A stretch of 39,985 bases of DNA from contig JACUUL010000014.1 of the NCBI GenBank assembly GCA_014859345.1, positions 1 to 39,985 of the forward strand. The letters run 5' to 3'. The notes beneath the pieces are model-generated. The model was not told the DNA's origin. It saw nothing but the letters and a program-made list of their open reading frames with translations, and ran no database searches. This stretch comes from Thermoleophilia bacterium (lineage in GTDB: Bacteria > Actinomycetota > Thermoleophilia > BMS3ABIN01). Below are positions 12,822 through 39,817 of the stretch, piece by piece (the stretch's first letter is position 1; every line of letters begins with the position of its first letter). The translations under genes were made by a program, and so were the position numbers.

Positions 12822-13035
12822 TTAATAAACCTTTCGCGAACGAAACATCTCTTCAAGAAAACCGTGCTGATTAGATAATACCTTCAATAAGCCCTTTCTG
12901 ACTACTTTATCTCCTAACACCTCTATTTTTTTTGCCGAAATCATTAGTTAAGGTTTGAGGCTGGTGCATACATAGCGGAGCGTGTGTTCTACGGGGAGGA
13001 GACACCGCCACCCTGTCATCTGGCGCCGGGCTTCA

Positions 13036-13104
13036 GACAAAGGCAAACCTGTCGCGAGACAGGGACGCAAAGCCAAGGGTCTCAATTGATACGGCCTGGC
13101 TGCC
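13036..13104 (+). ncRNA. Cyclic di-GMP-I riboswitch aptamer (GEMM-I)
   Basis: The conserved GEMM-I blocks occur in order and at normal spacing. GGCAAACC is at 13042-13049. A six-pair stem follows, CCTGTC/GACAGG at 13048-13053 and 13058-13063, capped by the GNRA tetraloop GCGA. GGGACGCAAAGCC is at 13062-13074, GGGTCT at 13077-13082 and the closing GGCTGCC at 13098-13104. Such aptamers bind the second messenger c-di-GMP. It sits 12 bases before the GTG start of the secreted protein at 13117. The leader from about 12955 is also structured: CCCTGTC at 13011-13017 could pair fully with GACAGGG at 13058-13064 and compete with the aptamer stem. No second copy is visible before the paralogue at 37760. 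Confidence 0.93.
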
Positions 13105-13110
13105 AGGTAG
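13095..13110 (+). promoter_or_regulatory. Putative riboswitch expression platform: hairpin hiding the ribosome site
   Basis: CCTGG at 13095-13099 and CCAGG at 13103-13107 form a perfect five-pair hairpin with loop CTG. It uses the same bases as the aptamer's closing strand (GGCTGCC, 13098-13104) and covers the AGG of AGGTAG (13105-13110), the only Shine-Dalgarno candidate for GTG 13117. The two folds exclude each other. I infer translational control in which bound c-di-GMP holds the aptamer closed and frees the ribosome site, an ON switch. No terminator hairpin or U-run lies between aptamer and start. Confidence 0.55.
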
Positions 13111-13116
13111 CAAAAA

Positions 13117-14817
13117 GTGCGGCGTTTTATAACACTTTTAATATCGATATCGCTGACCGCTGCTTTGCTGTCATTCACTGTCTCGGTGGCCAGTCCGGCC
13201 TCGGCGCAGGAATCTGTTCGTCTTTCCGAGGATCCGTTGACGGGACGGGTCTACGTGGAGACAGAAACAATCAAGGCGGTCTGGCATTACAAGACGCTGG
13301 CATCGGAAAGTTACAATCAGGGCGGGGGCAATCTTTACGAGCTTTATTACAAACCGCTCGATCCGGAAATGAAAAGGAACCTTGTGTCATTTATCCCGTC
13401 TCCCAGTTGGGGGAACGGAAACTCGACATCGATCTGGGCCGGGATCGGCGGCGTGGGCACTACCACTCTGTACGCTACGGACAGCCTTCCATCTTCTTCC
13501 GGCACAAATTCGTTTGCTGACATCATCTCCGATAATAACCTGAGTGGCACGCTGGAATCTCAATCCGCGCAGATCGAAGCTAAAGGGAATGCCGAACTCA
13601 ATTTTACCTACAGGGTAAAAAACCGGTCGACCGGAAAAGAATGGTACCGGGCTGTTAAGACATGGACCGTTAAACAGGATGGCTCGATATATCTGAATGT
13701 TGACTGGTCTGTCCTGCGGTCGGGATATTATTCGGAGATCTCGGTCAGAAGCGACTGGAGCTACTTCGCGGGTTGGAACCGTTTTAGTAAATACGGTAAG
13801 GACTGGTCGTCTGAGGCAAACCCGAAGTACCTGCTGGGATCCAATGGCATCGAATCGAAAACAGCAGAATGCTGGAACTCCCTCAATGCTTTTCATCCGG
13901 ACTGGGTCTCCCTGACCGGTTCTGCTATCGCGCCCACGCTGGTTATGTCGGCGGATAATGACGGCCAAGGATTCGCGGGTAGCGGATTGTATCAGCTGGG
14001 AAAACAACTTTTCGGCAGTGCCGCAAATCCTATCGCGGAACAGTGCACGCACAGGGCAAATCAAAGCGTGGGCGCTCATGGTCTGGCCTGGATGTCCTGG
14101 TGGGGCGGCAATCCACCGACCGGTCACCGGTACCGGTGGGTCGATGCGGGAACTGAGTGGAGCGACTCCTTTGTAATAAGCCTCATTGAGGGTCCGCCAG
14201 GGGGAGGACCCGACATTTCCAGAGTCCAGTCGCACAATACGGGTGACAGCGTACAGATTACCTGGCATACGGATGTTAAGGCCAGTTCCCAGGTGCAGAC
14301 TCATAACTCTTCCAACCCCTGGGTGTGGACGACGCTGTCCACTTCGTCAGACATGGTAACGGATCACGCGCTGGTTCTTGGCGAACTTCCTCCGGATCAA
14401 GTCTACAGATATCGGGTGCGCAGCGTCGATTCTGCGGGAAGGGTTGCTGTAAGTGGAAATTACTTATTCAGCACCTTCCAGTCCGGTGTACTTGGCGCGG
14501 TAGATCTGACTCTAACCCAGGAGCGCAGCTACTGGGTCAGTTTCAGGGATTATTTGGCTCGGGTATTGTCCGTTGGATATGTGATTTCTAATACAGGACC
14601 CGGTTCGGCAAACGACGCAAAAGTTACCTCGTCATCGGCATCGAGAGGCGTAAAAACGGTTAGCAGTCTTCCGGTGCAGATAGGCACTGTTCATCCCGGC
14701 TCATCTGCCCGGATAATCATTGAATACGAAGTTCCTGCGGGAGTACCAAGCTTCACTGCCTATCTGCGAGGAAATGCCCTTGACGAAAGCGGCGGACTTC
14801 ACGAATTTCCGCACTGA
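13117..14817 (+). CDS. Secreted multi-domain surface protein under c-di-GMP riboswitch control
   Basis: This 566-residue protein has a clear Sec signal peptide (MRRF, hydrophobic core 5-24, cleavage after ASPASA near residue 30). Residues about 45-355 form a domain I do not recognise, rich in Trp, Gly and Tyr, with two Cys (252 and 310) conserved in the paralogue at 37760. Residues about 366-455 look like a fibronectin type III domain (ITWHTD then VYRYRVRSVDSAG). Residues about 462-566 look like a CARDB/DUF11-type beta domain. There is no LPXTG, PEP-CTERM or C-terminal membrane anchor. GTG 13117 is preceded by AGGTAG within the riboswitch platform. A role as an extracellular matrix or glycan-binding protein is inference; an enzymatic (lyase- or hydrolase-like) role for the N-terminal domain is also possible. 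Confidence 0.8.
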   Translation: MRRFITLLISISLTAALLSFTVSVASPASAQESVRLSEDPLTGRVYVETETIKAVWHYKTLASESYNQGGGNLYELYYKPLDPEMKRNLVSFIPSPSWGNGNSTSIWAGIGGVGTTTLYATDSLPSSSGTNSFADIISDNNLSGTLESQSAQIEAKGNAELNFTYRVKNRSTGKEWYRAVKTWTVKQDGSIYLNVDWSVLRSGYYSEISVRSDWSYFAGWNRFSKYGKDWSSEANPKYLLGSNGIESKTAECWNSLNAFHPDWVSLTGSAIAPTLVMSADNDGQGFAGSGLYQLGKQLFGSAANPIAEQCTHRANQSVGAHGLAWMSWWGGNPPTGHRYRWVDAGTEWSDSFVISLIEGPPGGGPDISRVQSHNTGDSVQITWHTDVKASSQVQTHNSSNPWVWTTLSTSSDMVTDHALVLGELPPDQVYRYRVRSVDSAGRVAVSGNYLFSTFQSGVLGAVDLTLTQERSYWVSFRDYLARVLSVGYVISNTGPGSANDAKVTSSSASRGVKTVSSLPVQIGTVHPGSSARIIIEYEVPAGVPSFTAYLRGNALDESGGLHEFPH

Positions 14818-37759: not shown

Positions 37760-39817
37760 ATGAAAAGAGAGGGGCTGAAAAGCAGGCTTGCGCTCATGCT
37801 TAAAGGGCAATATCTGTGGCATGTTGGCAGACTATGTCAGAAGAGAGAGACGCGGATTCCCAAATATCTCGGTCTGGCGGCGCTTCTTTTTGTCTCGGTT
37901 ATCGGCTACGTGGTGTTCGGTCCTTCTGAGACCCAGTGGCCAGTAATCACGGAAGACGCGGTTAACGGCCGGATCACGTTTGAGAATGAAAATGTCAAGC
38001 TAGTCTGGCATTACAAGGCGCTGGCCTCGGAAAGCTACAATCAGGGCGGGGGCAATCTATACGAGCATTATTACAAACCGCTGGATCCGGAGATGACAAG
38101 AAATCTTGTCTCGTTTGTCTCGTCTTCCGGTTGGGGCAATGGCAGGTCGACATCAATCTGGGCCGGAATCGGCGGTGTGGGCAATACCACTCTGTACGCT
38201 ACGGACAGCCCCCCGTCTCCATCCGACACAAATTCTTTCGCTGACATTATCTCCGATAACAACCTTAGCGGTTTGCTGGAATCCCACTCCTCGCAGGTCA
38301 ATGCCGAGGGTAATGCCGAGCTCAGGTTCACGTACAGAGTCAGGAACCAGTCGACAGGCAAAGAGTGGTACCGGGCGATTAAAACCTGGACGGTCAAACA
38401 GGATGGCTCGATACACCTGAATGTAGATTGGACCGTGCTGGAGTCCGGATATTTTTCAGAAATCGCGATTAGAAGCGACTGGAGCTATTTTGCGGGGTGG
38501 AACCGCTTCAGCAAATACGGAAAGGACTGGTGGCCGCAGGGCAGCCCCAGTTATCTTCTAGGAGCCTACGGCATCGATACGAAGACTGCGGAATGTTGGG
38601 ACTCTCTTAACACTTTTCATCCTGACTGGGTGTCCTTTACAGGTTCGGAAGTTGCCCCCACGCTGGTGATGTCGGCGGATAATAACGGTCAGGGATTCGC
38701 AGGCAGCGGCTCCTATCAACTGGGAACGGAACTCTTCGGCAGCATCGCAAATCCTACCATGGAACAGTGCTCAATGAGGCCAAATCAAAGCGTGGGCGCT
38801 CATGGTATGGCGTGGATGGCCTGGTGGGGCGGCAATCCTCCCAAGGGTGACCGGTACAAATGGGTCGACGCCGGCACTCAGTGGAGTGACTCCTATAAAA
38901 TAAATCTCGTGGAGGGGCCGGCCGCGAGCCCCGACATATCCGGGATCGTATCGGAGGAGTTGGGCGATCGGATAAGGATTGCCTGGCATACGGATACAGC
39001 GGCCGATTCCCAGGTGCAAGTGAACAACTCCGACAACCCTTGGGCATGGACCGCGATATCCAGTTCATCAGAGAAGGTTACGGATCACGAGCTGGTCCTG
39101 CTGGATCTTCCCCCGGATCAGGTTTACAGGTATCGTGTGCGCAGCGTCGATGATGCCGGTCAGGTCGCAGTAAGCGGCAATTACTTTTTCAATACCCCCA
39201 AGTCCGGCGAAGTTCCGCAGCCCCCCATTATTGACGGCATCGACAGTGAGCCAAGTAACGATGGGGCAGCAATCAGCTGGACCACGGACATCGAATCAAA
39301 TTCAGAAGTCCAGGTAATGGACGCCGAAGGATCGGTTGTCGCCACAGCCAGGGATGCCGCTTTGGTTCGGAATCATCGGCTGCCGGTAGCGGGATTGCAA
39401 CAAGGAACCACATATTTTTTCAAAATAATCAGCACCGATGCTTCAAATAATGCCAGTGAGAGCACCGGCCATAGCTTTACTACTATAAACGGGCCTGCTT
39501 TCGATCTTGTGATTTCTCTGGATAATGCTTATTGGAGCACATTCGCGGATTTCAAGGATCGCCGGCTGTCGGTGGTTTTCTCCATCGTCAATAAGGGACC
39601 CGCGATGGCCAGAACGGTTACCATTACCTCTGCGGTCGCCAGCAGGCATGCTTACGCCATCGATGAATTTCCCGTAACTCTGGGAGACCTGGATGCCGGC
39701 GGCGCCACCACATTTACGCTGTTGTTTTATGTACCGAATGGAATCAACAAGTTCGAGACGTGGTTGTATGGCTTTGCCGTGACGCCCACCGGAATCAGGG
39801 TCGATAGCGGGCAGTGA
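37760..39817 (+). CDS. Membrane-anchored paralogue of the riboswitch-controlled secreted protein
   Basis: This 685-residue protein has a basic N-terminus and one hydrophobic segment near 36-54 without a clear cleavage site, so a signal anchor is likely. Residues about 70-385 are the same unknown domain as in the protein at 13117, with very high identity by eye (for example WHYK.LASESYNQGGGNLYE and WSYFAGWNRFSKYGKDW). Both conserved Cys are kept. Two fibronectin type III domains follow (about 390-480 and 492-580; the first copy has one), then the CARDB/DUF11-like end. ATG 37760 has TAGGTTAAG upstream. There is no riboswitch here. The gene lies divergently beside the epimerase gene. A role as a surface or matrix protein is inference. 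Confidence 0.78.
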   Translation: MKREGLKSRLALMLKGQYLWHVGRLCQKRETRIPKYLGLAALLFVSVIGYVVFGPSETQWPVITEDAVNGRITFENENVKLVWHYKALASESYNQGGGNLYEHYYKPLDPEMTRNLVSFVSSSGWGNGRSTSIWAGIGGVGNTTLYATDSPPSPSDTNSFADIISDNNLSGLLESHSSQVNAEGNAELRFTYRVRNQSTGKEWYRAIKTWTVKQDGSIHLNVDWTVLESGYFSEIAIRSDWSYFAGWNRFSKYGKDWWPQGSPSYLLGAYGIDTKTAECWDSLNTFHPDWVSFTGSEVAPTLVMSADNNGQGFAGSGSYQLGTELFGSIANPTMEQCSMRPNQSVGAHGMAWMAWWGGNPPKGDRYKWVDAGTQWSDSYKINLVEGPAASPDISGIVSEELGDRIRIAWHTDTAADSQVQVNNSDNPWAWTAISSSSEKVTDHELVLLDLPPDQVYRYRVRSVDDAGQVAVSGNYFFNTPKSGEVPQPPIIDGIDSEPSNDGAAISWTTDIESNSEVQVMDAEGSVVATARDAALVRNHRLPVAGLQQGTTYFFKIISTDASNNASESTGHSFTTINGPAFDLVISLDNAYWSTFADFKDRRLSVVFSIVNKGPAMARTVTITSAVASRHAYAIDEFPVTLGDLDAGGATTFTLLFYVPNGINKFETWLYGFAVTPTGIRVDSGQ

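What the first reader, a model, noticed from the sequence alone, without database searches (positions are those of the whole stretch)
13036..13117. c-di-GMP-I riboswitch with a compact ribosome-site switch controlling a secreted protein
All GEMM-I conserved blocks are present. The closing strand overlaps a perfect five-pair hairpin (CCTGG, loop CTG, CCAGG) that hides the only Shine-Dalgarno candidate, AGGTAG. The overlap of about ten bases predicts an unusually small translational ON switch with no terminator.
Basis: partly seen in the sequence, partly recalled or inferred. Interest (0 to 1): 0.8.

Follow-up and report, generated by a model that had tools for sequence, protein, structure and literature searches.

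The report
c-di-GMP riboswitch, probably an OFF switch
An uncultured actinobacterium carries a genuine RNA switch for the signal molecule c-di-GMP in front of a gene for a secreted protein beside a slime-polysaccharide gene cluster, and comparison with relatives suggests that the signal turns translation of that gene off, not on as first proposed.

Summary
The aptamer is real: window 13033-13108 scores 65.4 bits (gathering 59) for Rfam c-di-GMP-I-GGC (RF03167) and 62.1 bits (gathering 35) for c-di-GMP-I. The three ligand-contact positions are canonical (G13042, A13069, C13103), so c-di-GMP is the likely ligand. The proposed ON mechanism is not supported: of 132 related aptamers only the window has all five hairpin pairs, and in 8 orthologous leaders the pairing is no better than shuffled sequence. 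The aptamer's 5' strand (M, 13023-13038) can pair with the Shine-Dalgarno/start codon (R), or with an upstream leader segment (L, 12953-12967) that resembles a ribosome site (15 of 15 pairs in the window). M:R extends helix P1, so ligand binding should hide the ribosome site: a translational OFF switch. Across the lineage these aptamers precede pilin, glycoside-hydrolase and GGDEF genes, and 61 of 132 follow a WhiG/flagellar-type promoter (2.4% in shuffles). Sign and strand exchange are inferred; nothing was tested at the bench.

The parts
12915..12941 (+). Candidate WhiG/flagellar-type promoter: TAAC (12915-12918), 15 nt, GCCGAAAT (12934-12941); 9 of 12 consensus positions
   Evidence: Sequence and consensus scan. 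Weak alone (shuffle p about 0.28), but GCCGAA sits at the aligned place in four of the five orthologues (the fifth, G002, starts downstream of it), and 61/132 aptamers of the class have a match of 10/12 or better upstream.
12953..12967 (+). Leader segment L (GUUUGAGGCUGGUGC), complementary to M; resembles a ribosome site (GAGG...GUG); proposed anti-sequestor
   Evidence: 15/15 pairs with M in the window, 93% of cells paired in six orthologues against 26-50% when slid; shuffle p=0.02 for the window.
12966..12987 (+). Leader hairpin GCAUAC 12966-12971 / GUGUGU 12982-12987 (GCACAC/GUGUGC in orthologues)
   Evidence: Alignment A3 and consensus fold.
12993..12999 (+). Conserved GGGGAGG, Shine-Dalgarno-like, role unproven (decoy or standby site)
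   Evidence: GGGGAG upstream of 13/19 translational loci of this family and 0/40 other loci.
13023..13038 (+). Strand M: P1 5' strand plus extension; can pair with L or with R
13033..13108 (+). c-di-GMP-I aptamer; ligand-contact equivalents G20=13042, A47=13069, C92=13103; P2 13048-13053/13058-13063 with GCGA loop; P3 13071-13078/13095-13101
   Evidence: cmscan RF03167 65.4 bits, RF01051 62.1 bits.
13095..13107 (+).
   Evidence: Sequence; not conserved.
13105..13120 (+). Strand R: ribosome site AGGTAG 13105-13110 and start codon GTG 13117-13119, pairing with M (13107/13034, 13109-13111/13030-13032, 13117-13120/13023-13026)
   Evidence: Column pairs; full helix in orthologues.
13117..14817 (+). 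Regulated gene: 566-aa secreted protein, signal peptide, N-terminal domain of unknown family, Fn3-like 369-453, C-terminal domain 460-565 shared with dozens of proteins per genome
   Evidence: orthologues in 8 other genomes of the family.

Best explanation
This is a c-di-GMP-I riboswitch acting on translation, most likely as an OFF switch. The mRNA starts at a WhiG/flagellar-type promoter about 90 nt before the aptamer (inferred). As the leader is made, segment L pairs with M, the 5' strand of P1. Without ligand M stays with L, and the Shine-Dalgarno and GUG start are open. When c-di-GMP binds, P2, P3 and the G20/A47/C92 pocket form, P1 is stabilised, M moves from L to R, and M:R covers both the Shine-Dalgarno and the start codon, so the secreted protein is not made. 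Shown here: the aptamer, its canonical ligand residues, conservation of L:M and of the orthologues' M:R complementarity, and the non-conservation of the rival hairpin. Inferred: ligand identity, the sign, and the order of strand exchange.
For: Aptamer over both Rfam thresholds. G20 and A47 equivalents are canonical, A47 in 128 of 128 readable relatives. In 34 loci scored as translational, native P1-extension pairing is -18.1 kcal/mol against -14.4 with 5' strands swapped between genomes (25/34 better than the median swap); the hairpin shows no signal. In 8 orthologues L:M beats shuffled leaders (p below 0.05 in 6/8, window 0.02) and M:R beats shuffles (0.002-0.034 in four, 0.068-0.106 in three including the window). 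L:M is 93% paired in register, 26-50% when slid; the window's changed M keeps all 15 L:M pairs. Orthologue start codons are predicted fully paired with M. The genome's other aptamer, in front of pilin, has a GTGGTTTGCC complementary to its own GGCAAACCAC before a terminator-like hairpin, an arrangement that also predicts OFF. Eight GGDEF proteins are present. A P1-based translational OFF switch is precedented by Vc2, as described in PMC9262584.
Against: For the window alone M:R is weak (8 pairs in register, shuffle p 0.11; swap rank 0.58) and its Shine-Dalgarno is poorer than in orthologues. No double compensatory change in L:M; one uninformative one in M:R; control (a) shuffles show no covariation. 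Energy folding of the window predicts a more open Shine-Dalgarno in the aptamer-constrained fold (0.68 against 0.04 unpaired), which taken alone favours ON, though the start codon stays paired in both. Most orthologue leaders show little predicted difference between the two states.
Confidence: 0.62

Rival explanations
1. Translational ON switch as first proposed: without ligand CCTGG/CCAGG hides AGGTAG; ligand forms P3, breaks the hairpin and frees the site.
For: The hairpin is perfect and exclusive with P3. Constrained folding opens the Shine-Dalgarno in the window (0.04 to 0.68 unpaired).
Against: Only 1 of 132 aptamers has the five pairs, orthologues 2-3. P3 end x ribosome site is no better than shuffles in 8/8 or swaps in 34 loci. 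The GG/CC part is forced by aptamer conservation. The start codon stays paired in the constrained fold.
Confidence: 0.17
2. Aptamer intact but switching lost or minimal in this species: the gene keeps a weak, largely constitutive ribosome site.
For: Window M:R and Shine-Dalgarno are weaker than in orthologues; P1 has non-standard pairs in the model alignment.
Against: L:M is fully kept although M has changed; aptamer core fully conserved.
Confidence: 0.12
3. The ligand is another cyclic dinucleotide (for example 3',3'-cGAMP) or an unknown variant ligand of the GGC type.
For: RF03167, a variant family, scores above RF01051.
Against: G20 equivalent is G; A47 equivalent is A where the RF03167 consensus has G (alignment; 128/128 relatives A). 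GGDEF enzymes are present. Known cGAMP aptamers carry A at position 20 (own knowledge).
Confidence: 0.07

Closest known systems
c-di-GMP-I (GEMM-I) riboswitch, RF01051; Vc2 of Vibrio cholerae as translational type
   Same: Aptamer core, P2 GNRA loop, P3 and ligand-contact residues; control of translation through P1 and the ribosome site (Vc2 is described as a translational OFF switch in PMC9262584).
   Different: Upstream leader segment resembling the ribosome site and competing for the P1 5' strand; candidate WhiG-type promoter; actinobacterial host.
c-di-GMP-I-GGC, RF03167
   Same: Best-scoring Rfam model, above gathering in the window and in 50 of 99 related genomes.
   Different: Window and 128/128 readable relatives have A, not G, at the A47 position of that model's consensus.
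RsiG-(c-di-GMP)-WhiG switch of Actinobacteria (PMC8325347)
   Same: Same promoter type (TAAA / GCCGATAA) and same kind of target, type IV pili, under c-di-GMP control; a WhiG equivalog is present.
   Different: Protein, not RNA; no RsiG recognised in this genome by exact motif. The riboswitch would be a second layer.

Membership tests
c-di-GMP-I riboswitch (RF01051 / clan CL00126) | Covariance-model score above gathering | tested here: met
   RF01051 62.1 bits (gathering 35); RF03167 65.4 bits (gathering 59)
c-di-GMP-I riboswitch (RF01051 / clan CL00126) | Ligand-contact residues G20, A47, C92 | tested here: met
   G13042, A13069, C13103 by alignment to the model and tabulation; position equivalence from own knowledge of Vc2
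c-di-GMP-I riboswitch (RF01051 / clan CL00126) | Binds c-di-GMP | not testable with these tools
   Needs in-line probing or ITC
c-di-GMP-I-GGC variant (RF03167) | Consensus G at the A47 position | tested here: not met
   Window has A13069; 128/128 readable relatives have A. That GGC names positions 20/47/92 is my reading of the model, not a cited definition
Translational OFF switch (Vc2-like) | P1 3' side continues into the ribosome site and pairs with the P1 5' side | tested here: inconclusive
   Strong in orthologues and lineage, weak in the window alone (p 0.11)
Translational ON switch through P3-end hairpin | Conserved pairing of P3 3' end with the Shine-Dalgarno | tested here: not met
Transcription-terminating riboswitch | Intrinsic terminator between aptamer and gene | tested here: not met
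   13 nt between C13103 and GTG; no terminator on the + strand
WhiG/FliA promoter | TAAA-N15-GCCGATAA | tested here: inconclusive
   Window 9/12 (shuffle p about 0.28); class-wide enrichment 61/132 against 2.4% in shuffles

The most novel reading that the evidence does not exclude
In this early-branching actinobacterial lineage type IV pilin, secreted glycoside hydrolases and this secreted protein form one regulon with double c-di-GMP control: WhiG-type promoters (WhiG being held by c-di-GMP through RsiG in relatives) followed by c-di-GMP-I OFF switches, the translational ones using an upstream decoy copy of the ribosome site as the competing strand.
Probability: 0.35. Interest if true: 0.68.

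Novelty: new variant of a known kind. Interest (0 to 1): 0.5.

Why it matters
It would give c-di-GMP signalling in poorly known, mostly uncultured Actinobacteria a concrete target list (pilin, matrix-active enzymes, this secreted protein) and a testable sign. If the promoter link holds, the same second messenger gates these genes twice, at sigma-factor availability and at the mRNA. The ribosome-site-like leader strand is a simple expression-platform design that can be tested with a few mutants in a laboratory host.

Tried and rejected
ON hairpin 13095-13107: rejected as the conserved mechanism. Unrelated second Rfam family in the leader: nothing credible. Leader element as a widespread independent RNA: model R1 hits only the six genomes with the orthologous gene, others E 0.07 or worse. 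RsiG by exact motif: none in the own genome, 72 hits in 19 family genomes against 49 for the reversed control, not interpretable. Protein function by fold: AlphaFold mean pLDDT 63 with the N-terminal domain poor, PDB hits only generic Ig/Fn3; sequence search finds only Fn3. Thermodynamic folding as arbiter of the sign: gives conflicting or flat answers. Papers on c-di-GMP riboswitches in Thermoleophilia: none in the library.

Full report
What is there. The window is a whole 39,985-base contig of a 2.08-Mb genome. Its relatives by protein search are uncultured Actinobacteria/Thermoleophilia assemblies. A scan against all Rfam families gives a single hit, RF03167 c-di-GMP-I-GGC, at 13033-13108, 65.4 bits against a gathering score of 59. 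The parent family RF01051 gives 62.1 bits against 35.

Ligand. By alignment to the model, the Vc2 G20, A47 and C92 equivalents are G13042, A13069 and C13103. The RF03167 consensus shows G at the A47 place; the window and all 128 readable relatives have A. The best-scoring model is therefore the GGC variant, but the binding pocket looks canonical. The genome encodes eight GGDEF domains above the Pfam cut-off. c-di-GMP is the most likely ligand; binding was not tested.

Gene. The 566-aa product starts with a signal peptide and carries an N-terminal domain without a Pfam family, an Fn3-like domain at 369-453 and a C-terminal domain at 460-565 found in dozens of other proteins per genome. It lies among glycosyltransferases, two Wzy-like polymerases and a flippase. 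An orthologue in G009 lies beside a repeat-unit polymerase and glycosyltransferases. Eight other genomes of the family have an orthologue, and in seven of these the same aptamer sits directly upstream; the eighth, G010, is cut by the contig end.

Testing the ON model. The proposed hairpin pairs the P3 3' end with the ribosome site. Among 132 aptamers from related genomes only the window has all five pairs; the seven orthologues have two or three. In 34 loci automatically scored as translational (a few of them pilin loci with doubtful near starts), P3-end pairing is -7.6 kcal/mol native and -8.05 when partners are swapped between genomes. In the eight orthologous loci it never beats shuffles (p 0.46-0.98). 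The GG/CC part is a by-product of aptamer conservation.

The alternative. In the same 34 loci the region upstream of the aptamer pairs with the region between C92 and the start at -18.1 kcal/mol native against -14.4 swapped, 25 of 34 better than the median swap. In the orthologues this is a helix of strand M with both the Shine-Dalgarno and the start codon (for example CGCACUU x AAGUGCG), contiguous with P1. Ligand binding, which needs P1, should stabilise it and repress translation.

The competing strand. Orthologous leaders share a block between promoter and aptamer. Its first part, L, is complementary to M over 15 pairs. In the window M has diverged (GCGCCGGGCUUCAGAC against GCACUUAGCUUCAGAU) and all 15 L:M pairs are still standard. 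Across six species 93% of cells pair in register against 26-50% when slid. Shuffling the leader gives p below 0.05 in six of eight loci, 0.02 for the window. L resembles the ribosome site (GAGG, then GUG), which is why both compete for M. A second Shine-Dalgarno-like motif, GGGGAG, occurs upstream of 13 of 19 translational aptamers of this family and none of 40 others. Relatedness inflates these counts: the 13 loci fall mainly into two gene groups, the orthologues number eight, and there is no two-sided compensation in L:M (controls show no covariation above shuffles).

Limits for the window itself. M:R is weaker than in relatives (8 pairs in register; shuffle p 0.11; swap rank 0.58) and its Shine-Dalgarno is poor. 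The OFF sign therefore rests mainly on homology and on the regulon.

Regulon. Of 132 aptamers 38 precede a type IV pilin motif. Twenty-one of these carry 8-10 nt (mostly GTGGTTTGCC) complementary to the aptamer's own GGCAAACCAC, most followed by a U-run, an arrangement that predicts transcription termination with ligand, also OFF. The window genome's second aptamer is one of these, after pilB, pilT, pilC and a sigma gene and before pilin. Other targets include GH26, GH99/71-like and GHL15 proteins and a GGDEF protein.

Promoters. TAAA-N14..16-GCCGATAA at 10/12 or better occurs upstream of 61 of 132 aptamers, 2.4% of shuffles and 0 of 126 downstream controls. This is the consensus used for WhiG targets in Rubrobacter, where c-di-GMP arms RsiG against WhiG and type IV pili are the target (PMC8325347). 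The genome has a WhiG equivalog (358.8 bits, cut-off 343). The window's own match is 9/12 and weak on its own; RsiG was not identified.

Verdict. A true c-di-GMP-I riboswitch and an ordinary member of that class in its aptamer; the sign proposed first is probably wrong. The strand-exchange leader and the promoter link are the parts worth a specialist's time.

Noticed in passing
L001 1501-1581; L194 4608-9931 (G000:C105): The genome's other c-di-GMP-I aptamer follows pilB, pilT, pilC and a SigB/F/G-like sigma gene and precedes a pilin, with a 10-nt anti-aptamer GTGGTTTGCC and a terminator-like hairpin.
   Followed up: partly
132 aptamers in loci L001-L162: WhiG/flagellar-type promoters (10/12 or better) upstream of 61 of 132 c-di-GMP-I aptamers in this actinobacterial class, 0 of 126 in downstream controls.
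   Followed up: yes
L194 4608-6320: PilB of this genome carries the MshE-type c-di-GMP-binding motif (NF053729, 62.3 bits, cut-off 38), another c-di-GMP input to the pilus.
   Followed up: no
window 37760-39817: Close paralogue (73% identity over 24-458) of the regulated protein, with an N-terminal membrane anchor; no riboswitch was found upstream.
   Followed up: partly
protein residues 460-565 (window 14494-14811): C-terminal domain of about 105 aa that recurs in dozens of otherwise different proteins per genome in this family; possibly a cell-surface module.
   Followed up: no
G001:C7, G004:C39, G005:C8, G009:C6, G018:C17 (L066/L119, L004/L112, L019/L120, L070/L154, L027/L106): Two aptamers on opposite strands about 9.7-10 kb apart in at least five genomes, one before a GH26-like gene (checked in G005), the other with a long leader; what lies between was not examined.
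   Followed up: no
L133 (G087): Two near-identical aptamers about 0.9 kb apart, each in front of its own short open reading frame (the first a pilin).
   Followed up: no
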